NCBI GenBank assembly: GCA_029056055.1
Contig: JAIDCC010000069.1
Location: 1 to 50,287 of the forward strand
Length of the DNA: 50,287 nt
Direction: 5' to 3'
DNA from: Duncaniella sp.
GTDB lineage: Bacteria > Bacteroidota > Bacteroidia > Bacteroidales > Muribaculaceae
The first letter of the stretch is position 1, and every line of letters starts with the position of its first letter. Below, piece by piece: positions 30,223 to 40,157 of this stretch. The translations under genes and the position numbers were made by a program. The notes beneath the pieces were generated by a model, which worked only from the letters and a program-made list of their open reading frames with translations, was not told where the DNA came from and searched no databases.

Positions 30223-30254
30223 TTTGGTTAATATGCTGAAAATTACTAACTTTG
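30223..30254 (+). promoter_or_regulatory. Promoter of the CHASE2-caspase operon
   Basis: TTTG at 30223-30226, 20 bases, then TAACTTTG at 30247-30254. This is a perfect match. Transcription would begin near 30261, leaving about 19 bases to the ATG at 30280, which supports 30280 as the original start of the first gene. Confidence 0.8.
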
Positions 30255-30279: not shown

Positions 30280-31510
30280 ATGACGAAAAGCAAACATATT
30301 GACAATCAACTAATTACCCCCCCCCAATGAGCCACCGAAGCCTTCGCTGAAGGAGCGTCTTCGCGCGGCTGTGCCCGAGGCGGTATGGGTGACCTGTCTT
30401 GCTTTTCTGCTTTCGCTGCTCTTCTCGCAGCCCCTGTCATTTTCGGCAGCCACGATTCTACAGTCGAAAGACAAGGGAGACTTCAACATGACCGATTTCT
30501 ATTGCACGGCAGCCGATTCGCGACCCGTGAGGGCGCTCGACCCCGACATCGTGATAGTAGACATCGCCGACACCGACCGCGACGACGTCGCCGACGTGAT
30601 ACGCCTGCTAAGCTACATGAACCCGGCAGTCGTGGGGCTTGACGTCACTTTCGCCGAACCTCGCGAAAACGACGAATCGCTTCTCGATGCTATCAGCGCG
30701 TGTCAGAACGTCGTAATGGCCGGGGGCGTGAGCCGCACATCCGACTCGCCCGAACGTTTCACACTCGACGACACCACCTATTTCTATAAGGCCTTGGCCC
30801 CCGAGGCCCGTCTCGGCGTTGTCAATTTCCCCACATCGCGCAGCGGCAAAACCATCCGCTCGTTCCGACCCACATTCATCACCGAATATTCCGACACGCT
30901 TGAATCGTTTGCAACCGCGGTGACAGCACTCTACCGGGGAGAGAAAGCCGCGGCTATGACCTCCGAAAGCAATCTGCGCATCGACTTTCCGAGCCGCCGC
31001 TTCACCATAGTGCCGTGGCATGAAGTGGCCGACCGACCCGAGAAAATCGAAGGGCGCATCGTGCTCGTCGGAGCGATAGGAGAAGCGACCGACTTACACC
31101 CCACTCCAATCGGTCAGGAGACCGACGGCGTGCTGATTCACGCCTATGCCGCAAGCACCCTGCTGCGCGGCGAACACTACACAGAAACCGGGAGACCTTT
31201 CACCATGACGGTGGCATTCCTGCTTAGTCTGCTGCTCTGCGTGCTCATGCTGACCTATTCGAGTCCGGCGCGAGGCATGTGGCTGCGCGTGTTGCAGATT
31301 GGAGTGCTTTACATCCTGATACGCATAGGCTATTACCTCTACGTCGACCACAGGTTTGTCATCGACATATCCTATCCTCTGCTCATGCTGACCTTCTGCT
31401 TCTTTGCCCTCGACATCTGGGCGGGATTGAAACACTACGGCAAGAGCGCGGCGACATTCATCAGAAACAAATCACGACAAACGACTAACCTTAAACAACA
31501 ACCTTCCTGA
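30280..31510 (+). CDS. CHASE2 membrane protein, frame broken at a C run
   Basis: The promoter and the ATG at 30280 define the expected start, but that frame ends at a TGA at 30328 just past nine C (30317-30325). From there a second frame runs to 31510. With eight C the two join into one protein (MTKSKHIDNQLITPP then NEPPKPSLKERLRAAVP). As it stands, only a GTG at 30371 could start the rest, giving 379 residues. The protein has an N-terminal membrane segment, a periplasmic CHASE2 sensor domain (IVIVDIADTDRDDVADV, VVGLDVTFAEP, GRIVLVGAIGEATD) and three C-terminal membrane segments. No kinase or cyclase domain follows. It is the first of seven genes. Confidence 0.85.
30317..30325 (+). repeat. 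Run of nine C in the CHASE2 reading frame
   Basis: This mononucleotide run lies 37 bases inside the expected coding region. Nine C puts the ATG frame out of register; eight or eleven would restore it. It is therefore a candidate phase-variable tract, a fixed mutation or a sequencing error. Confidence 0.8.
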
Positions 31511-31511
31511 A

Positions 31512-32357
31512 ATGTCAAGACTTATTGCCTTAATCACAGTGCTTTTGCTTAGCCTGACGGCTGTACGGGCCGAACTGACCGTTGAGAGTATGAAGGGAGC
31601 AGTGACACGACTCGAATCGGGACGAGCAGTGCCGCTAAAGACAGGCGCACGTCTCTCGGCCTCCGACATTCTCATGATACCCGCAGGCGCGAGCGTCGAC
31701 ATCCACGACAACAACGCGAAGAAACCTGTGACCTACACATGCACCACAACGGGAGAGAACAGCGTTTCGAAACTCATAGCCGACGCGCTCCGCGCCGCAA
31801 AGTCGAACGGCCGTGCCATCCACGAACACATCCGCGTCACGAAAGCCGACGACAACGACGGCGTGGTGTTCGTGGAAAAAGGCAAAGTGACCCGTTCGCT
31901 CCACATCTACGACCCCGCGGCCTTCAATCTCAAGATGGACGCCGACCGTCTCAGCAAGAAACTCTATGCTCTGCTGCCCGACCCGGAAGCCCTCGCGTCG
32001 CTCCAACCCGACGCGGAAGTGCTGTCGCTCCATTCCGACGACGGAGCGCTGAGCTTCATGGTGGAGAACACCCTCGACTCGCCGGTCTACTTCAACGTGT
32101 TCAAGATTTCTGGCATCGACGGCTCCGTATCGATATCGGAACTGGGACAACCCGTGGGTTGCTACGCCATCCTCCCCTCGCAATTTCTGGCCCGCGAGCA
32201 GACGCAAGGGCTCAATGCCGAGGAGGTGCACATCCTGATTATGACCGACTTTTATTTCGACATAGACGAAGTGCTCGGAGGCCTCAACAAACTCATCGAG
32301 ACCAAAGCACCCGCCGAAGGCGCCGACTCCACCCGTCTCTACATACTTCCGCTCTAA
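31512..32357 (+). CDS. Exported FecR/DUF4384-like protein of the caspase operon
   Basis: The 281-residue protein has a signal peptide (cleaved after VRA) and starts one base after the CHASE2 stop. Residues about 22-75 (ESMKGAVTRLESGRAVPLKTG, SASDILMIPAGASVDI) resemble the FecR-type beta domain. The C-terminal half (LSFMVENTLDSPVYFNVFKI) has the feel of DUF4384, a domain often linked with bacterial caspases. Both matches are by eye and uncertain. It is likely periplasmic. FecR-like and CHASE2 proteins are frequent neighbours in other bacteria, which fits this operon. Confidence 0.75.
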   Translation: MSRLIALITVLLLSLTAVRAELTVESMKGAVTRLESGRAVPLKTGARLSASDILMIPAGASVDIHDNNAKKPVTYTCTTTGENSVSKLIADALRAAKSNGRAIHEHIRVTKADDNDGVVFVEKGKVTRSLHIYDPAAFNLKMDADRLSKKLYALLPDPEALASLQPDAEVLSLHSDDGALSFMVENTLDSPVYFNVFKISGIDGSVSISELGQPVGCYAILPSQFLAREQTQGLNAEEVHILIMTDFYFDIDEVLGGLNKLIETKAPAEGADSTRLYILPL

Positions 32358-32394
32358 CCGCAGCTACCGACCCAACACCCATATCAAGCATCAC

Positions 32395-34503
32395 ATGAAA
32401 GCATTCACACGAAATCAGATAGTAGCTTTATCTCTGACTCTTGCCCTGACAGCGTCAGGCGTGAGCGCCTCCGGCACCGAGGAAGGTGCCGGAGACTTTT
32501 CCGCGCCCGATTTACATTTCCTAATGGAAGAGACCCCTCTCGGGCTGTCGACCTTCTCAATGACAGCCTACCCCTACTCGCTTAAAAACGTCTACAACAT
32601 GCGCGGCCTCCCCATGGCCCTGACCGGCGACACGGTGAAAAGTGTTGCCATCAACCCCACAGGCATTAACTTTGCCGTGGTCACCTCCGACAAGAAAGGA
32701 CGCCGCAACATGAAAGTGTATTCAAACACCGAGCAGGACGCCGTGAAGCACAAGCTTGACACCAAGCGCTTCGGCCAACCCCGCGCTGTCGCCTACACAC
32801 CCGACGCCTTGAACATAGTCGTGGCCACCGATACAGCTGTGCTGATGTTTGACGCGCGCAAGTTCAACCTCACAGGCTCGATGCCACTCATTCATCCGGC
32901 CGACAAGATTGCGCTCAGCGGCAACGGCTATCACCTTGCTACGGTCTCGGGGCCGCTCGTGACGGTCTACAACTTCGAAGACAAGAAGGTGCGTCACAAA
33001 TGGAACTTCGAGACCGGAGTGAACGACATCATCTTCTCTGACGACGACTCGGAATTTGCCGTGCTCACCGACGACGGGCAGGCCAACATCTACGACACCC
33101 GCACGTTCATTGTCAAGAACACCGTCGAAAACATCGGCGAAGCCCTCAGCGGCAGCTACAATTTCGACGGCAAGTATATGGTAGTGGCGCAGTCGCCCAC
33201 GAGTATCGCCATAGTCAACCTTCTCGTGCCCGACTCGGCACGTCAGACCATCAACGTCCCCTCGGGCATGGTGAGCGACGTAGAGTTCATCCCAGACTCC
33301 AAACGTAACACGCTCCTTGTCTACAACACCGAGAAAGCTGTAGACGTAAGACGAATGAAAAGTCTCGAACCGTTCTACAACCGTCTGGTTGACGACGAGG
33401 TAAACAAACTCATGAACGAGTGGCTCAAGATGATGCCCGGCGAGAGTCTCGAAGAATATCACAACCGTGTCAACGACGAGACACGCGCCCGTCAGCGCCG
33501 TCAGTTTGAGGACGAAGTGGCCACGCGCCTCGCCCCCGACATGGTGGCCATGGCACAGGTGTCGCTCGGACAGTATGACGACCGTCACGGCCTGCTCGAA
33601 GTGAGCTTCTCCAACATGCCCTCCATCTATCTGCCCGTCGCGGCCGACGAGGTAGGGGCATTCTCAAGCGCCGACAACCTGCAATTCTCGAACGCACGCT
33701 ATGCGGTAGACGCCCTCGACCGCTTCGAAATGATTTATGCCGAGGTGCTCAACTCGGCCGACGGCAAGACCTACATCTACAACAACATCGACCGTGCGGA
33801 ACTCAACTTCATGCAGGCCGACGAAGAGGAAGAGGTGTCGCTCGCCCTCATCGAGCAGCAGATGATGGAAGAGATAAAACTGCGCGAGCTTCAGGAGAAG
33901 ATTGTAGAAGAGGCCAAGAGCCGCGACATCATCTCAGACCACACCAATATCACCGTAGCCACGGAAGTCGTGCCCGACTATGACGCCGACGGACGACGCA
34001 TCTTCAACTACAAGGTGAGCTACACCTACGAAGTAGACCCAGGCTATACGGCGCGCGAAGACTTCGGCCCCGGCAAGTATCTCATCAGTCAGTCGGGCGC
34101 GGCCTCGTCGATGCTCGAAATTGTCAAGAAGTCGCTCGAAGGCGAACTGGCGCGCTATCTCAAGGAAGGCAAGAAAGCCAACGTGCGCATCTCGGGCACA
34201 GCCGATTCGAGCCCAATCGTGGGACGCATCATATATGACGGCACCTACGGAGCGTTTGAAGACGAACCTGTCTACAACAACGGAGAGATGTCTACCGTGA
34301 CCGTAGCGCCAAAAGGCCGAATTACCCAAAACGAGCAACTCGCATTCCTGCGCGCACAGGGCGTGAAAAAGTATCTCGAGGACAACGTGGCCGAGCTCAA
34401 CGACATGAAGACCTCCTATCGCATCGACATCAACGTGGCCGAAGGCAAAGGAAGCCAGTTCCGCCGAATCACCACGGAAATCACCTTTGTCGACGCGCTT
34501 TAA
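32395..34503 (+). CDS. Exported beta-propeller protein with OmpA-like end
   Basis: The 702-residue protein has a signal peptide (cleaved near VSASG). Residues about 75-335 contain WD40-like propeller repeats (VKSVAINPTGINFAVVTSD, GVNDIIFSDDDSEFAVLTDD, SGSYNFDGKYMVVAQ). Residues 343-460 form a module that is also found in the caspase protein (WLKMMPGESLEEYHNRVND ... GKTYIYNN). A charged coiled coil (about 480-520) follows. The last 140 residues look like a divergent OmpA-type peptidoglycan-binding domain (VRISGTADSSP, QNEQLAFLRAQGVKKYLED). It could anchor the system to the cell wall. Confidence 0.78.
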   Translation: MKAFTRNQIVALSLTLALTASGVSASGTEEGAGDFSAPDLHFLMEETPLGLSTFSMTAYPYSLKNVYNMRGLPMALTGDTVKSVAINPTGINFAVVTSDKKGRRNMKVYSNTEQDAVKHKLDTKRFGQPRAVAYTPDALNIVVATDTAVLMFDARKFNLTGSMPLIHPADKIALSGNGYHLATVSGPLVTVYNFEDKKVRHKWNFETGVNDIIFSDDDSEFAVLTDDGQANIYDTRTFIVKNTVENIGEALSGSYNFDGKYMVVAQSPTSIAIVNLLVPDSARQTINVPSGMVSDVEFIPDSKRNTLLVYNTEKAVDVRRMKSLEPFYNRLVDDEVNKLMNEWLKMMPGESLEEYHNRVNDETRARQRRQFEDEVATRLAPDMVAMAQVSLGQYDDRHGLLEVSFSNMPSIYLPVAADEVGAFSSADNLQFSNARYAVDALDRFEMIYAEVLNSADGKTYIYNNIDRAELNFMQADEEEEVSLALIEQQMMEEIKLRELQEKIVEEAKSRDIISDHTNITVATEVVPDYDADGRRIFNYKVSYTYEVDPGYTAREDFGPGKYLISQSGAASSMLEIVKKSLEGELARYLKEGKKANVRISGTADSSPIVGRIIYDGTYGAFEDEPVYNNGEMSTVTVAPKGRITQNEQLAFLRAQGVKKYLEDNVAELNDMKTSYRIDINVAEGKGSQFRRITTEITFVDAL

Positions 34504-34524
34504 CACTCAATAGACTTTTAACAA

Positions 34525-37149
34525 ATGACATTCAGACCCTCATTCTTTCTGCCCCTGAGCGGAGTGCTCGCGGCAGCTTCGGTGACGGCGTCCGTCATGG
34601 CCGACACAGATGCGAGGAATATCGCCGCCCCGGAAGCGTCAGCGGTGGAAATCACTGTGACCGACGCCGACAGTGCAGCTATCATCTCACCCGACTCGCT
34701 CGCCGCGCTTGCCACCGAAGGGTTCAAAGCCTACCGCAACAGGAAATTTGACGGTGAAGACCCGGCGACCCTCTACCCCGCCCTGCGCGACCTCTACTCG
34801 CAGACCGTCGAGGCGCTTGCCCTGCAACCCGCCTCCTCGGCCGGGCTGCTGCATTGCCGCGACATCCTTCGCCAGATTAATCCCGACCTGCTGAAAGGAG
34901 CCTTCTACTATTCGTCGCGCGAGGATATGCCCTCGATGAACGCATTTGCCCGCGCCTACCTCGACACGCAGCTCAACCCCGCACTTAAGGATGAAAACTG
35001 GCAGCGCGACCCTGAGGTGTTTCCGACAATCTGCTACGTGGCCGCCTCGTCGGCCTACAACGCACGCGAGTGGGAGAAAGCCATCGACTACTTCCGTCTC
35101 TACCTTTCGAGCGGTGCCGACTCGCGCCGTGAACAGGTGTATGCCTTCATGGGCACGGCCTGTCTCGAAGCCAAAAACTATCCCGTGGCGATAGCGGTGA
35201 TGCGCGAGGCCATAAAACAGTATCCGCAAAACGAGCAACTGCCCCTCATCGGCATCCAAGCCTGCGTCGACGGCGGTCACGGCCAGTTTCTTCAGGAATT
35301 TCTCACTCCCGCACTGGCCATGAAACCCAACGACACACGTCTGCTCACCCTTCAGGCCAATCTCTACGAAGACCTCAACGATTACCGCTCGGCTCTCAAC
35401 ATCTACAACAGCATCGACGAGCTGACACCGGGCAAACTGAGTGTGGCCAAGCATCAGGGCATGGACTACTACAACATGGCGGTGACATCGTTTAACAAAG
35501 CGGTCAATACCTCGGACGACAAAGAGGCGAAGCGTCTGCGCCGTCAGGCACGCAACTACTTCGACGCCGCTTCGCTGAAATTTCGCTCCGTGCTTGAAAC
35601 CGACCCCACATCGGTGAAATACCTGCGCGCCCTCGGCATCTGCTATCTCTGCCTCGAAGACCAGTCGTCGTTTGCCGAAATCAACGAGCGACTGTCGGCC
35701 ATGGGCGAAGACCCGCTGAAAGACGTATTCATGCCGCCGATTATCGCAGCGGCCGAGGGTGGCACGAAGCACTTCCACACCTCCGGCCTGGGCGATGACA
35801 ACGTCAGTGTCGACGCCCCGCTCTACAATGATTTCGCCACTAATTTCATCACCGAGCGTCTTGAGACGTGGGTGAAACGAGGCGAATTCGAGCCTGACGA
35901 TAAATATGAAAACCGCGTCAACCTGACAACGGTGAAACAGGAAGCCGACCGTCTGCGCCGCGAAGCCGCCGAAGAGTACATGTCGACCTACGGCAGCAAC
36001 CTCCGCCTCTCGTCGCTCAACCTTTTGCCCTACGACCCCAACAATCAGGTGTTCAAAATCGAGTCGAACTACGGCCCGATACTCGTACCGGTGCCTCTGA
36101 AAAACAACGAAGCCGAGACATTCAAATCGGTATTCGAAGGCATCGACATACGGTCGCCCCGCTACTACATCGACAGCGAGGGCATCAAGGTGGCCTCGGT
36201 GACACTCATCACCCCCGGCGGCAAAGCCTACACCTATGACAACGGCAAGGAGCTGAGCTATGCGAGCGTGCCCGACGTCTATATCGACTACAACACAATC
36301 CTCAACACCCCCAAAGACAAACAGGTCAAAAGTCAGACGGCAGCACGCACGCAGCTCAAAAGCGACGTAGACCGCAACGTGCCCGAAGCCGACCGCAAAA
36401 TGCAAAACCGCCTCGCGCTCGTCATTGCCTGCGAAGACTATGCCAACGCCTCTGACGTGGCTTCGGCTATCAACGACGGCGAGGGCATAGCCGACTACTT
36501 CAACAAAACGCTCGGAATCCCGGAAAACAACATCATTCACCTGCCAAACGCGACACTCGGCCAACTGCTCGGGGCGATGAACCGCCTGCGCAACCGCTCG
36601 GAAGACCTTAACGGCGAGGCCGAGGTGTTCGTCTACTACGCCGGCCACGGCATACCCGACGAACACTCGAAAGATGCCTACCTGCTGCCCGTCGACGGAA
36701 ACGCCACTGCACCCGAGACCTGCTTCAAGCTGTCGCGGCTCTACGACGAACTCGGGTCGATGAACGCACGCGACGTGGTGGTGCTTCTCGACGCATGTTT
36801 CAGCGGAGCGCAGCGTGCGGTGTCGGGCGAACAGATTGTCAAGGCCCGCGGCGTGTCAATCAAACCCAAAGAATCTGCGCCGAAAGGCAACATGATGGTG
36901 CTCAGCGCGGCCTCGGGCGACGAAACGGCCATGCCTTACCCCGGCATGAACCACGGTCTGTTCACCTACTATGTACTGAAACACCTCCAGGAGACCAAGG
37001 GCAACACGACACCCCACCGTCTGGCCGACTACGTCATCAAAGAAGTCAAGACCCAAAGCAACGCCGTCAACGCCAAGACGCAGACCCCGACCGTAAGTCT
37101 GTCGGGCGAAATGGCGCAGCGATGGGACACACTTAAATTCCGCCCGTAA
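34525..37149 (+). CDS. Exported TPR-caspase (peptidase C14) protein
   Basis: The 874-residue protein begins with a hydrophobic signal segment (residues about 8-26). Residues about 140-400 contain tetratricopeptide-like helices (WEKAIDYFRLYLSSGAD, YPVAIAVMREAIKQYP, YRSALNIYNSIDELTPG). Residues 449-575 carry the module shared with the propeller protein (WVKRGEFEPDDKYENRVN). The caspase domain runs from about 627 to the end, with catalytic H708 in VYYAGHGIP and C758 in LLDACFSGAQR. Both residues are intact, so it should be an active cysteine protease in the periplasm or cell surface, an unusual place for a caspase. Its stop overlaps the next start (TAATG). Confidence 0.92.
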   Translation: MTFRPSFFLPLSGVLAAASVTASVMADTDARNIAAPEASAVEITVTDADSAAIISPDSLAALATEGFKAYRNRKFDGEDPATLYPALRDLYSQTVEALALQPASSAGLLHCRDILRQINPDLLKGAFYYSSREDMPSMNAFARAYLDTQLNPALKDENWQRDPEVFPTICYVAASSAYNAREWEKAIDYFRLYLSSGADSRREQVYAFMGTACLEAKNYPVAIAVMREAIKQYPQNEQLPLIGIQACVDGGHGQFLQEFLTPALAMKPNDTRLLTLQANLYEDLNDYRSALNIYNSIDELTPGKLSVAKHQGMDYYNMAVTSFNKAVNTSDDKEAKRLRRQARNYFDAASLKFRSVLETDPTSVKYLRALGICYLCLEDQSSFAEINERLSAMGEDPLKDVFMPPIIAAAEGGTKHFHTSGLGDDNVSVDAPLYNDFATNFITERLETWVKRGEFEPDDKYENRVNLTTVKQEADRLRREAAEEYMSTYGSNLRLSSLNLLPYDPNNQVFKIESNYGPILVPVPLKNNEAETFKSVFEGIDIRSPRYYIDSEGIKVASVTLITPGGKAYTYDNGKELSYASVPDVYIDYNTILNTPKDKQVKSQTAARTQLKSDVDRNVPEADRKMQNRLALVIACEDYANASDVASAINDGEGIADYFNKTLGIPENNIIHLPNATLGQLLGAMNRLRNRSEDLNGEAEVFVYYAGHGIPDEHSKDAYLLPVDGNATAPETCFKLSRLYDELGSMNARDVVVLLDACFSGAQRAVSGEQIVKARGVSIKPKESAPKGNMMVLSAASGDETAMPYPGMNHGLFTYYVLKHLQETKGNTTPHRLADYVIKEVKTQSNAVNAKTQTPTVSLSGEMAQRWDTLKFRP

Positions 37150-38024
37150 TGAAACGCCTCATTCTCTCTCTGCTCGCACTGCTGGCCGCGACCGTCGTGG
37201 TGACCGCTCAAAAGGTGGTCACCATCACGGGTGAGGCCACCTATTACGGCGATGCCACCGACTCGCCCGCCGACGCGCGGCGAAAAGCTCTCGAACGCGC
37301 CCGTCTCAACGCGCTCGCCGAGAAATTCGGCACGGTCATTTCGGGAAGTGACATCAGCCGAGGCGAAAACCTCAACGGCAGGGAGACCTCGTTTTTCTCG
37401 TCGCTCACCTCTACAGAGGTCAAGGGTGAATGGATAGCCGACGAAGGCGAGCCGGAATACAAATTCGAGCTCGACTCCGACGGCCACTACGTGGTCAGTT
37501 GCAAGGTGACCGTAAAAGCGCGCGCCCTCTCAAACAAGGCTCCAGACTTCAAAGCCCTGCCTCTGCGCAACGGCGCCGAAGAGCGACATTTCGCGACGGA
37601 GTTTGCGAGCGGCGACGACCTTTTCCTTCAATTCCTCGCGCCTGTCAACGGCTACGTGGCCGTCTACCTTGTCGCGGGCAACGAAGTGATGACACTTCTC
37701 CCCTACCAGGCGTCGACCACCGGCAAAGTGCCCGTCAAGGCCGGAAAGACATATGTGTTCTTTTCTTCCGCTCACGCCGACCCCAACTTCGGCACAGCCG
37801 ATGAATTGACCCTCGGCACCGACGACACGATAGAGCGCGACCAACTCTACGTGCTCTTCTCCCCACGGGAGTTTGCCAAGGCCCTCGACCACGGAGGTAC
37901 GGGGACACAGCCCCGTTCGCTCAGCTACACCGACTTTGCCAAATGGATAAGCCGTCTGCGCAGCGCCGACGACGAAATGGGCATGAAGGTGTTCAACATC
38001 GTCATCACCGGCAATCAGCAATAA
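37149..38024 (+). CDS. Exported DUF4384 protein
   Basis: The 291-residue protein has a signal peptide (cleaved after VVTAQ). Residues about 25-75 (GEATYYGDATDSPADARRKA, LNALAEKFGTVISG) resemble the N-terminal fold of FlgT/LPP20-like proteins. Residues about 150-240 fit DUF4384 (DDLFLQFLAPVNGYVAVYLV, MTLLPYQ). DUF4384 is a beta domain that I know mainly as a partner or fusion of bacterial caspases. Its ATG shares a base with the caspase gene stop, so translation is coupled. A role as binding partner or substrate of the caspase is inference. Confidence 0.85.
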   Translation: MKRLILSLLALLAATVVVTAQKVVTITGEATYYGDATDSPADARRKALERARLNALAEKFGTVISGSDISRGENLNGRETSFFSSLTSTEVKGEWIADEGEPEYKFELDSDGHYVVSCKVTVKARALSNKAPDFKALPLRNGAEERHFATEFASGDDLFLQFLAPVNGYVAVYLVAGNEVMTLLPYQASTTGKVPVKAGKTYVFFSSAHADPNFGTADELTLGTDDTIERDQLYVLFSPREFAKALDHGGTGTQPRSLSYTDFAKWISRLRSADDEMGMKVFNIVITGNQQ

Positions 38025-38054
38025 TTTCAATTCACATTTTTCACACACGCACCT

Positions 38055-38690
38055 ATGAAGAAATTTTTAACTTTACTCCTGACTCTCTGCCTCGCTATAG
38101 GCGCATGTCAGGCCGCAGAACTCACCAAGAAACAGCGCAAACAAATCGACAAGGAAGCCAAAGCCAAACTCAAGGAATACAAGAAAGAAGGTTGGACAGT
38201 GTTCGGCAGCTCGCGCACACTCGAAAGCGTCCTCAACCGTCATCTCGAAACCCTCGAAGAGAAGGGCGACGACGGCTATGAAGTAGTCGGCACCGCCGGA
38301 AATTTCAAGGCCAAGAACATCGGACATCAGCAGGCCGTCAATGATGCCTGCATCTCTTACGCCGGCATGGCGGGGTCGGAAGTGCGCGGCCAGGTGGCCA
38401 ACGAAGTCAAGGCCAACGGCACCGACCTCGATGACGAATTCGAACACTTCATGGCCACTTACCAACGTCTCGTGGAACGCGAAATCAAAAGCGAGATGCA
38501 GGAAAGTTTTTCGATAATCCGCGAGCTCCCCACAGGCGGCTTCGAGATGCAGACATTCTTCATCGTCAGCGAGAGCGCAGCCGCAAAGGCGCGTCAGCGT
38601 GCGGCCGAAGCTGCCCTCAAGGAGAGCGAGACAGCGCAGGCCCACAGCGAACGTCTTTCGGCCGTCATCCGCAAAGCTTTCGAACGCTAA
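38055..38690 (+). CDS. Exported protein of unknown function, caspase operon
   Basis: The 211-residue protein has a signal peptide (MKKFLTLLLTLCLAIGACQAAE; a lipoprotein reading with cysteine at 18 is less likely). The mature part is helical and highly charged: a Lys-rich helix at about 24-50, a segment LNRHLETLEEKGDDGYEVVGTA, then QAVNDACISYAGMAGSEVRGQV and a C-terminal coiled coil rich in Ala and Glu. The middle faintly resembles LPP20-type secretins-associated proteins. I do not recognise a family. It sits 30 bp after the DUF4384 gene and 3 bp before the transglutaminase-like gene. Confidence 0.8.
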   Translation: MKKFLTLLLTLCLAIGACQAAELTKKQRKQIDKEAKAKLKEYKKEGWTVFGSSRTLESVLNRHLETLEEKGDDGYEVVGTAGNFKAKNIGHQQAVNDACISYAGMAGSEVRGQVANEVKANGTDLDDEFEHFMATYQRLVEREIKSEMQESFSIIRELPTGGFEMQTFFIVSESAAAKARQRAAEAALKESETAQAHSERLSAVIRKAFER

Positions 38691-38693
38691 GCC

Positions 38694-40157
38694 ATGAGAT
38701 GGCCCTCCGCTCTTTGGCTTGGCTGCGCGGCTGCCATCCTGTCTACGCAATCTGCCGGCGCGCAGGAGCGAGAGTCGTATGACGACTTCCGCAACCGCGT
38801 CATGGCCGAGCACGACGCTTTCCGCAACTCCGTGCTCGACAGCTACTCGAAATTCTTCAATTCCGTATGGCAGGAATACGAGCAGTTTCAGGAAGCGGGA
38901 CGCTGGCCCGAGCCGAAGCCTTTGAAAGCGCCTGTTGCGCCGGAGCCGGACAAGACGCGGCCCGCCGTGACACTCCCCTCTCCTCCCCGGCCGGAGAAGC
39001 CCAAAGTCGAAGTGGCTCGAAAGGATGTGGAGGTGCCCGAAACCAAACGGCCTCAGCGCACGTCGGGTAAGGAAACGACCATTGATTTCTACGGAGTGCC
39101 CGTAGTGATAGCCGGACGCGCTCCCATGCTCATTGGCAAACTCGAAAAGGGAGCCGATTTTGCGGCACAATGGGAGAAACTGAGTGCCGATCCTACGGCC
39201 ATCGAAGCAGCTGCCGCGATAGCCGCAAAAGCGCGTGAGCTCGGCTTGAACGACTTCCTGACTTTCGACCTCGTAAGAGAATACGTCAGACAGACAAATA
39301 CGCGCGCACATTCCACGGTGCGCACCGCGCTCGTCCATTACATCGCAAGCCACCTTGGTTTCAACATCCGCGTCGCGCTCGTCAACGGCGAGGGAGTAAT
39401 CCTGCTCAACACATTGCAGACCCTCTACGGCAAACCCTACTACAACGTAGCGGGAGAGAAGTATTATCTCTTCCCCGACGGCGTCGACTTCAGCGGGCCT
39501 GTCAGAGTCTCCACCTGTCCGCTCCCCGCCGATGCCGACCACGGCCGAGCCGTCGACATGCGCTTCAACCGCCCGCTGACCCTCCCGGTCAAACCGCACG
39601 ACTTCACACTCACAGCCGCAGGGCTGACCCTGGCCGGGACTGTCAACGCAAACATCTATCCCATGCTTTATCGCTATCCGCAGACCGACTATGAGGTCTA
39701 CGCTGTGTCGAGTCTCGACCCCTCTCTGCGCCGCGACCTCGTGGCACAGCTCAAAAGTCAGCTTGACTCGGTGGCCCCTCTCGAGGCAGCCGACCGTCTG
39801 CTCGGATTCACGCAGACAGCCATAAAGTATGCCACCGACGAGCAGGCCCACGGCTTCGAAAAGCCCTACTTCCTTGAGGAGTGGCTCTACTACCCGCTCA
39901 ACGATTGCGAGGACCGCGCCGTGTTCTACAGCTACATGCTCTGGAACGCACTTGGCATCGAATGTCAGATGATTAACTATCCGGGGCACGAGAGCGTGGC
40001 TCTCACGCTGCCGGGGGTCACCGAGGGTGACCGCTACGAGTCGGAGGGAAAGACATTTCTCATCTCCGACCCGACATACATCGGCGCTCGCACGGGGCAG
40101 GGGATGCCTGTCTATGCTACGACGCCTCCGCGCATTGATTATCATTACCACCGCTGA
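38694..40157 (+). CDS. Exported transglutaminase-like protease
   Basis: The 487-residue protein has a signal peptide (cleaved near AGAQ). An N-terminal helical repeat (YDDFRNRVMAEHDAFRNS) and a Pro-rich linker (about 70-125) lead into a larger domain. The catalytic triad of the transglutaminase-like cysteine protease fold is visible as C405 (LNDCEDRAVFYSYML), H432 (YPGHESVAL) and D459 (ISDPTYIGA). It may hydrolyse or cross-link peptides in the envelope. It is the last gene of the operon and is followed by a terminator. Together with the caspase it gives the operon two different cysteine-protease folds. Confidence 0.87.
   Translation: MRWPSALWLGCAAAILSTQSAGAQERESYDDFRNRVMAEHDAFRNSVLDSYSKFFNSVWQEYEQFQEAGRWPEPKPLKAPVAPEPDKTRPAVTLPSPPRPEKPKVEVARKDVEVPETKRPQRTSGKETTIDFYGVPVVIAGRAPMLIGKLEKGADFAAQWEKLSADPTAIEAAAAIAAKARELGLNDFLTFDLVREYVRQTNTRAHSTVRTALVHYIASHLGFNIRVALVNGEGVILLNTLQTLYGKPYYNVAGEKYYLFPDGVDFSGPVRVSTCPLPADADHGRAVDMRFNRPLTLPVKPHDFTLTAAGLTLAGTVNANIYPMLYRYPQTDYEVYAVSSLDPSLRRDLVAQLKSQLDSVAPLEAADRLLGFTQTAIKYATDEQAHGFEKPYFLEEWLYYPLNDCEDRAVFYSYMLWNALGIECQMINYPGHESVALTLPGVTEGDRYESEGKTFLISDPTYIGARTGQGMPVYATTPPRIDYHYHR

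What the first reader, a model, noticed from the sequence alone, without database searches (positions are those of the whole stretch)
30280..40157. Envelope-located caspase operon with CHASE2 sensor, propeller, DUF4384 and transglutaminase-like protease
Seven genes follow one strong promoter with gaps of 37 bases or less, including a TAATG overlap, and end in a terminator. Each product has a signal peptide or membrane segments. Seen directly: caspase dyad H708/C758, transglutaminase-like triad C405/H432/D459, CHASE2 motifs and an OmpA-like tail. Known: CHASE2 is an extracytoplasmic sensor domain and DUF4384 is often linked to bacterial caspases. Inference: a signal sensed by CHASE2 controls a periplasmic caspase that acts on envelope targets or on its own operon partners, with the propeller protein fixed to peptidoglycan. 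Most described bacterial caspase systems act in the cytoplasm, so an exported version with two cysteine-protease folds deserves attention.
Basis: partly seen in the sequence, partly recalled or inferred. Interest (0 to 1): 0.88.

Follow-up and report, generated by a model that had tools for sequence, protein, structure and literature searches.

The report
Switchable envelope caspase operon
Gut Bacteroidales bacteria share a seven-gene set that appears to place a caspase-like protease and its partners outside the cytoplasm, and the gene of its membrane sensor often begins with a stretch of repeated C bases whose length decides whether the sensor can be made, so single cells may turn the system on or off at random.

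Summary
The seven genes are real and co-oriented. A caspase match at E<=1e-90 occurs in 67 of 397 genomes and 15 of 30 genera of the window's family; the propeller partner also occurs in other Bacteroidales. All seven stand in the window's order in 28 of 96 fetched loci; propeller-caspase are adjacent in 88 of 91 and CHASE2-gene 2 in 32 of 32 loci holding both. Caspase His/Cys are kept in 66/66 and 65/66 covering rows. Six window products have signal-peptide-like starts. CHASE2 ends within 36 residues of its last hydrophobic segment in 30 of 30 aligned members, so it has no cytoplasmic output domain. Runs of 8 or more C/G sit in 13 of 35 operon-linked CHASE2 genes, mostly at the gene start and far above chance, some in frame and some not, while the coding bodies compared stay under purifying selection. 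I read this as slipped-strand phase variation of a periplasmic caspase pathway. Function is inferred.

The parts
30223..30254 (+). promoter of the Bacteroidales type (consensus recalled), TTTG-N20-TAACTTTG
   Evidence: sequence; 6 matches in the window vs 0.14 expected
30280..30330 (+). leader ORF from ATG 30280, probable true start of the sensor; in this assembly it ends at TGA 30328 just after the C run
   Evidence: residues next to the run resemble the in-frame relative L108
30317..30325 (+). C9 homopolymer, candidate slipped-strand switch
30371..31510 (+). CHASE2 sensor (frame open from 30314): one N-terminal membrane segment, CHASE2 domain, later membrane segments, short tail, no cytoplasmic output domain
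   Evidence: Pfam CHASE2 96.1 bits; alignment of 30; tail lengths 4-36 residues
31512..32357 (+). gene 2, exported partner of CHASE2; no Pfam family (a FecR-like barrel at its start is my guess, not supported)
   Evidence: adjacent to CHASE2 in 32 of 32 loci with both and present beside it in 30 of 30 loci
32395..34503 (+). exported WD40-type beta-propeller + shared middle domain (about 325-465) + OmpA-like tail (about 575-670, sub-threshold)
34525..37149 (+). exported TPR + shared middle domain (about 431-574) + caspase (Peptidase_C14, 629-858), H708/C758
37149..38024 (+). exported DUF4384-family protein (window copy sub-threshold)
38055..38690 (+). gene 6, exported protein of unknown family
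38694..40157 (+). exported protein with an invariant C405/H432/D459 set, transglutaminase-like (tentative)

Best explanation
A two-module envelope signalling system under phase variation. Module 1 is an inner-membrane CHASE2 sensor without cytoplasmic output, paired with exported gene 2. Module 2 is an exported executor set: a propeller protein with an OmpA-like tail (perhaps held at peptidoglycan), a TPR-caspase carrying the same middle domain as the propeller protein, a DUF4384 protein, gene 6 and a transglutaminase-like protein. Shown by sequence: gene order, export-signal-like starts, catalytic residues, shared domain, absence of a cytoplasmic domain, recurrence and reading-frame effect of the C/G run. 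Inferred: CHASE2 and gene 2 sense an envelope condition and, within the periplasm, release the caspase, which cuts after Arg or Lys (conserved acidic residue near the catalytic Cys) in envelope proteins or operon partners; slippage of the C run decides cell by cell whether the sensor, and through polarity perhaps the whole operon, is made. The cell thereby bets between having and not having a costly envelope response.
For: Conserved order; catalytic residues; export heuristic with control; CHASE2 without output domain, 30 of 30; shared middle domain of caspase and propeller proteins, hhalign probability 98.7, E 2.7e-16; sensor and executor co-occur even on different contigs: within one genus 12 of 17 genomes with a CHASE2 pair apart from the caspase locus have the full caspase, against 15 of 77 without CHASE2. 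Tract: 13 of 35 linked CHASE2 genes have a C/G run of 8 or more, and none of 13 unlinked loci, one of which lacks its 5' end; 10 runs within 130 nt of assigned CHASE2 starts against 0.13 expected, 0 or 1 at each other gene (one of the ten, L072, is really inside a gene broken at the run); C9, C9 and C10 in three similar species; frame states 3 in, 7 out, 3 unclear; 64-65 stop-free codons before the run in 5 of 5 group members; dN/dS 0.07-0.13 in four comparisons among members whose runs break the frame as assembled (L075 is counted unclear); other runs of the kind in this genome split an hsdS gene and sit at the start of an M6 peptidase gene.
Against: No within-species length variation was seen, because no reads or second strains were available. 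Homopolymer length in draft assemblies can be wrong, and runs lie at many contig ends of this genome. 22 of 35 linked CHASE2 genes have no such run, including two near relatives of the window, L057 and L058. 34 of 64 loci with the propeller show no CHASE2 match on its strand with the window's protein as query, though several are cut by contig ends. L075 also has an ATG beside the run that is in frame. In the 64-65 codons before the run the third-position excess expected of coding sequence is weak, and absent in some pairs. dN/dS between window and L108 is higher, 0.42, and several dS values are above 1. Divergent unlinked CHASE2 genes (about 31-36% identity to my queries) may be a different family. 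No activity, substrate or localisation data; OmpA, transglutaminase and FecR labels are weak or unsupported.
Confidence: 0.5

Rival explanations
1. The operon is an envelope caspase system as described, but the C runs are not a switch: they are assembly errors, or neutral runs bridged by ribosomal or transcriptional slippage or by downstream starts.
For: All sequences are assemblies, mostly MAGs by their record titles; no read evidence; L075 has an in-frame ATG right before its run; many C/G runs of this genome lie at contig ends.
Against: Recurrence at the same gene start in several genera, on either strand and in different frame phases is not expected of random errors; L184 (C10) and L076 (C9) lie in different phases, which speaks against one fixed frameshift event.
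Confidence: 0.3
2. A self-destructive defence system: envelope attack (phage entry, bacteriocin, contact-dependent weapon) triggers the caspase, which kills the cell or blocks the attacker; phase variation limits the cost.
For: Patchy distribution (3 of 27 genomes of the own genus at E<=1e-90, window included; propeller in 9 of 393 of the order sample); caspases occur in bacterial conflict systems (PMC8195603, passages).
Against: The caspase matches only a generic PADLOC caspase model (36 bits) and no other gene matches a defence model except a weak, implausible Cas3HD hit for gene 7; no nucleic-acid-sensing or NTPase module was detected; all products look exported or membrane-bound.
Confidence: 0.2
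3. Housekeeping or surface-processing protease complex: the caspase matures or sheds envelope proteins, with the propeller/OmpA-like protein as scaffold, and CHASE2 merely modulates it.
For: Exported clan CD peptidases that process surface proteins are known in Bacteroidota (recalled); 34 of 64 propeller loci show no CHASE2 match beside them.
Against: Accessory distribution (67 of 397 genomes of the family) and co-occurrence of CHASE2 with the caspase even when on other contigs.
Confidence: 0.25

Closest known systems
Prokaryotic caspase homologs (orthocaspases, Peptidase_C14)
   Same: His/Cys dyad and caspase domain; TPR and WD40 partners common (PMC3501461 passages); OmpA domains in 14 caspase operons (same paper, section 13)
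   Different: Here the whole seven-gene set looks exported or membrane-bound, and TPR, middle domain and caspase form one conserved exported protein
CHASE2-caspase fusions (Trichodesmium erythraeum; EACC2-caspase-CHASE2 proteins)
   Same: CHASE2 sensor linked to a caspase (PMC3501461, PMC8195603; passages)
   Different: In the Trichodesmium protein the authors place the caspase in the cytoplasm; here sensor and caspase are separate proteins and the caspase looks exported
FecR + CHASE2 histidine-kinase operons (Burkholderia BiofilmReg)
   Same: Gene of an exported protein next to a CHASE2 membrane sensor gene (PMC5192318, passages)
   Different: There CHASE2 drives a cytoplasmic kinase; here CHASE2 has no output domain and gene 2 shows no detectable FecR domain
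EACC1 caspase conflict systems
   Same: NCBIfam caspase_w_EACC1 matches the caspase domain at E 3.2e-20
   Different: 72.5 bits is below the family cut-off of 140; no NTPase module was detected in the operon
Phase-variable contingency loci (poly-C/G slippage)
   Same: Homopolymer at or near the 5' end of an envelope sensor gene, lengths 8-10, mixed frame states
   Different: Bacteroidales phase variation is known to me mainly as DNA inversion (recalled); length variation within a species not yet seen

Membership tests
Peptidase_C14 caspase homologs | caspase domain above Pfam cut-off | tested here: met
   78.1 bits against 21.4
Peptidase_C14 caspase homologs | catalytic His/Cys dyad | tested here: met
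   H708 66/66, C758 65/66 of the rows covering the site (69 rows, 3 cut); L121 has Ser
Peptidase_C14 caspase homologs | proteolytic activity, basic P1 preference | not testable with these tools
   D756, two residues before Cys, is 66/66; acidic pocket residues are described in PMC6426788 (passages)
CHASE2 sensors | CHASE2 domain flanked by membrane segments | tested here: met
   96.1 bits against 26.3; alignment
CHASE2 sensors | cytoplasmic output domain (usual, not universal; recalled) | tested here: not met
   30 of 30 aligned members end 4-36 residues after their last hydrophobic segment
DUF4384 | Pfam cut-off of 27 bits | tested here: inconclusive
   window 15.6 bits; 29 of 31 aligned members match at E<=1, best 1.7e-7
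OmpA-like peptidoglycan binding | PF00691 above cut-off | tested here: not met
   18.2 bits for the window's C-terminal domain against 27.2; 12 of 25 members at E<=1; no solved-structure hit; D604 and R653 are 65/65
Transglutaminase-like | Cys-His-Asp triad and fold | tested here: inconclusive
   triad 47/47 of covering rows (52 rows); Pfam 3 of 35 at best E 0.025; only one solved-structure match at E<=1, an amylase at 0.24 outside the triad region; fold not predicted
FecR-like partner | FecR domain in gene 2 | tested here: not met
   0 of 28 members match FecR in Pfam at E<=1; no solved-structure hit
EACC1 conflict system | caspase_w_EACC1 above cut-off | tested here: not met
   72.5 bits against 140
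Phase-variable contingency locus | repeat tract whose length sets the reading frame | tested here: met
   (translation in silico only)
Phase-variable contingency locus | length varies among cells or strains of one species | not testable with these tools
   one assembly per species; C9/C9/C10 only between species

The most novel reading that the evidence does not exclude
A caspase signalling pathway that runs entirely in the bacterial envelope: a CHASE2 sensor with no cytoplasmic output signals sideways to an exported, scaffolded caspase, and single cells toggle the sensor by poly-C slippage, so that a gut population is always a mixture of caspase-armed and unarmed cells.
Probability: 0.35. Interest if true: 0.82.

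Novelty: new variant of a known kind. Interest (0 to 1): 0.66.

Why it matters
Most discussion of bacterial caspases that I know concerns cytoplasmic cell suicide (recalled). A conserved, exported caspase module with its own membrane sensor in gut bacteria would give caspases an envelope role and a testable input. A random on/off switch on its sensor would mean that single-strain experiments may silently lack the pathway. The literature searches made here listed no title or abstract start describing this seven-gene set or phase variation of a CHASE2 gene; they cover open-licence PMC text only, and most listed papers were not opened.

Tried and rejected
Defence-system annotation: only a generic caspase hit plus one weak, implausible Cas3HD hit for gene 7. 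FecR for gene 2: not supported. Shared ancestry of gene 2 and the DUF4384 protein (C-terminal parts), or of gene 6 with the DUF4384 N-terminus: hhalign probabilities 0.4 and 18.0. Gene 6 with the propeller's C-terminus: 37.2, left open. Empty-site test: the two flanking M16 peptidase genes are common in the genus (25 and 23 of 27 genomes) but lie far apart or on different contigs in the genomes where I compared the listed places, so no clean empty site was found. Occurrence outside Bacteroidales: only the own genome of 395 in the phylum sample had the propeller at E<=1e-30. Programmed frameshifting as the sole cause of the frame breaks: disfavoured because related runs sit in different phases. 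Structure prediction of gene 2 and gene 7: never ran.
Full report
What is there. Seven co-oriented ORFs lie at 30.3-40.2 kb with gaps of 1, 37, 21, -1, 30 and 3 bases (TAATG overlap read directly), behind a promoter TTTG-N20-TAACTTTG at 30223-30254 (6 matches of this pattern in the window against 0.14 expected; that it is the Bacteroidales consensus is recalled). Pfam supports CHASE2 (96 bits), the caspase domain (78 bits) with TPRs before it, and a WD40-type propeller (and PDB profile hits). Genes 2, 6 and 7 of the window match no family above a curated cut-off. The terminator is no better than chance.

The start codon. A run of nine C (30317-30325) separates it from the CHASE2 frame. In relative L108, which has C8, the corresponding ATG is in frame and its leader (QQITPP) resembles the window's leader (NQLITPP) up to the run.

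Conservation. A caspase match at E<=1e-90 is found in 67 of 397 genomes of the family sample, in 15 of 30 genera, but in only 3 of 27 genomes of the window's own genus, the window included. The contig scan with the propeller profile kept the best 80 of 134 relatives; some bear the record names Odoribacter, Bacteroides, Prevotella, Alistipes, Rikenellaceae and Paludibacteraceae. The propeller is found in 9 of 393 genomes of the order sample, 6 of them outside the family, and in 1 of 395 of the phylum sample, the window's own. I examined 68 loci (67 plus L039), chosen by their caspase match, and 28 new ones of the 80 (52 were duplicates). All seven genes stand in the window's order in 24 of 68 and 4 of 28; propeller-caspase are adjacent in 64 of 64 and 24 of 27 loci with both, CHASE2-gene 2 in 28 of 28 and 4 of 4, caspase-DUF4384 in 61 of 64 and 14 of 18, DUF4384-gene 6 in 46 of 53 and 11 of 14, gene 6-gene 7 in 34 of 48 and 12 of 15 (adjacency means at most 700 bases between alignments). 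In some lineages gene 6 stands before the propeller (8 of 68 and 2 of 28 loci). Several loci are cut by contig ends and one operon is split over two loci, so the seven-gene counts are lower bounds. The window's flanking M16 genes are not part of the set.

Residues and domains. Caspase H708 is kept in 66 of 66 and C758 in 65 of 66 rows that cover the site (three further rows are cut; L121 has Ser); the C405/H432/D459 set of gene 7 is kept in 47 of 47 covering rows of 52. Among the 60 listed of 83 solved chains the caspase-fold match is MALT1 paracaspase, E 3e-6; the better matches are to the TPR part. The stretch between TPR and caspase (about 431-574) is homologous to the stretch after the propeller (about 325-465): E 2.7e-4 by direct search, hhalign probability 98.7, E 2.7e-16. 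A common domain in both proteins is my main reason to expect that they work together. The OmpA-like tail is sub-threshold (12 of 25, best E 0.0011; no solved-structure hit), though D604 and R653, which I take from recall to match the peptidoglycan-holding positions of OmpA domains, are 65/65. The transglutaminase label rests on the triad and on 3 of 35 weak Pfam hits.

Location. A simple test (hydrophobic N-terminal segment plus a small-x-small site) is passed by all six exported window proteins and by 26 of 27 gene 2, 59 of 60 propeller, 61 of 64 caspase, 62 of 63 DUF4384, 54 of 54 gene 6 and 39 of 49 gene 7 relatives, with almost no later membrane segments; internal segments of the same proteins pass in 18 of 970. 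This is a heuristic, not a signal-peptide predictor. The 30 aligned CHASE2 proteins end 4-36 residues after their last hydrophobic segment, so the signal, if any, must pass to partners in the membrane or periplasm.

Two modules. In one genus of 111 genomes, 34 have CHASE2 at E<=1e-60 and 44 of the 52 with a caspase match at E<=1e-100 have what I count as a full-length, split or contig-cut full-length caspase: both 29, CHASE2 only 5, caspase only 15, neither 62. In 17 genomes I take the CHASE2 pair to lie apart from the caspase locus, by contig numbers and, for 13 of them, by the fetched locus. Of these, 12 have the caspase elsewhere, against 15 of 77 genomes without CHASE2 (p 9e-5). The species are related, so this p is optimistic; completeness of the listed genomes ranges from 58 to 100%; and several of these unlinked CHASE2 genes are only about 31-36% identical to my queries. 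Gene 2 had a match beside CHASE2 in all 30 loci, at identities down to 25%.

The C/G run. In the 68 loci (932 kb) there are 16 runs of 8 or more C or G; 10 lie within 130 nt of an assigned CHASE2 start against 0.13 expected from overall density, while the other six genes have 0 or 1 each. One of the ten, in L072, is really inside a gene broken at the run. Counting the window and four new loci, 13 of 35 linked CHASE2 genes have such a run (11 near the start, 2 inside the gene); none of the 13 unlinked CHASE2 loci has one, one of these being cut at its 5' end. Of the 13 runs, three leave the gene in frame (L087, L094, L108), seven out of frame (window, L072, L076, L077, L079, L091, L184) and three are unclear (L061, no ATG; L069, a promoter-like site follows the run; L075, out of frame from the shared distal ATG but in frame from an ATG beside the run). 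About one in three in frame is what free slippage would give. In the group L075/L076/L077/L079/L184 the 64-65 codons before the run are open in all five and begin M[RK]-x-x-SRH; the third-position excess there is weak and in some pairs absent, so that this leader is translated is probable, not proven. Run lengths in the group are C9, C9, C9, C9 and C10. The CHASE2 bodies of these members show dN/dS of 0.07-0.13 in four comparisons, with several dS above 1, so the gene is maintained, not decaying; window against L108 gives 0.42. A run also sits in the signal region of the propeller gene of L232 (C10, out of frame) and one upstream of the propeller gene of L117, next to a promoter-like stretch, loci in which no CHASE2 was found before the propeller.

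Genome context of the switch. The own genome has 27 distinct runs of 8 or more (counted by hand). I examined 16 of them: one splits a type I specificity gene into two Methylase_S halves, one lies at codon 5 of an M6 peptidase gene with a signal-peptide-like start, one lies in a membrane-protein ORF, one is the window's; the others are non-coding, at contig ends or unclear. At least 13 of the 27 lie within 100 bases of a contig end, which shows that such runs break assemblies and is the main reason for caution.

How it probably works. Best reading: CHASE2 and gene 2 sense an envelope condition; the signal reaches the propeller/caspase assembly through the periplasm; the caspase cuts envelope proteins or partners, probably after Arg or Lys (D756 two residues before the catalytic Cys is 66/66; acidic pockets of orthocaspases, PMC6426788 passages). 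The C run sets, by slippage during replication, whether the sensor is translated; an untranslated first gene may also lower expression of the rest by polarity (inference). What is sensed and cut is unknown.

Known relatives. CHASE2-caspase fusions and caspase operons with OmpA domains are in print (PMC3501461: passages and section 13; PMC8195603: passages), as are FecR/CHASE2-kinase operons (PMC5192318: passages). I saw no account of an all-exported caspase module with a CHASE2 lacking output, nor of phase variation of a CHASE2 gene, in search listings 19, 20, 23, 24, 72, 73, 79, 86 and 87; most listed papers were not opened.

None of these changes my odds.

Noticed in passing
L124 (G000:C75:1482): A type I restriction specificity gene is split into two Methylase_S halves in different frames at a C8/G8 run, the classical look of a phase-variable restriction system.
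   Followed up: partly
L125:1491-3011 (G000:C86:15935): An M6-family metallopeptidase gene (signal-peptide-like start) has a C8 run at its fifth codon, in frame in this assembly.
   Followed up: partly
L134:1015-1854 (G000:C15:25193): A membrane-protein ORF holds a G9 run at nt 486 on which the length of the frame depends; no Pfam hit for the native piece.
   Followed up: partly
G000, whole genome: At least 13 of 27 C/G runs of 8 or more lie within 100 bases of a contig end: length mixtures or sequencing trouble at such runs.
   Followed up: no
L232:5614 and L117:5707: Where no CHASE2 was found before the propeller gene, a C10 run lies in its signal region (L232) and a G8 run upstream of it next to a promoter-like stretch (L117).
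   Followed up: partly
L121: One caspase relative has Ser in place of the catalytic Cys, possibly a pseudo-enzyme.
   Followed up: no
many relatives, for example G029 and G442: Several relatives carry further caspase genes, some with the same middle domain (query residues about 430-570), with up to 7 matches per genome in the family.
   Followed up: no
L258, L260, L263: A distant gene 7 homolog (26-28% identity) stands next to CHASE2-gene 2 pairs; in L258 the pair also has the propeller beside it, in L260 and L263 none was seen in the 4 kb held.
   Followed up: no
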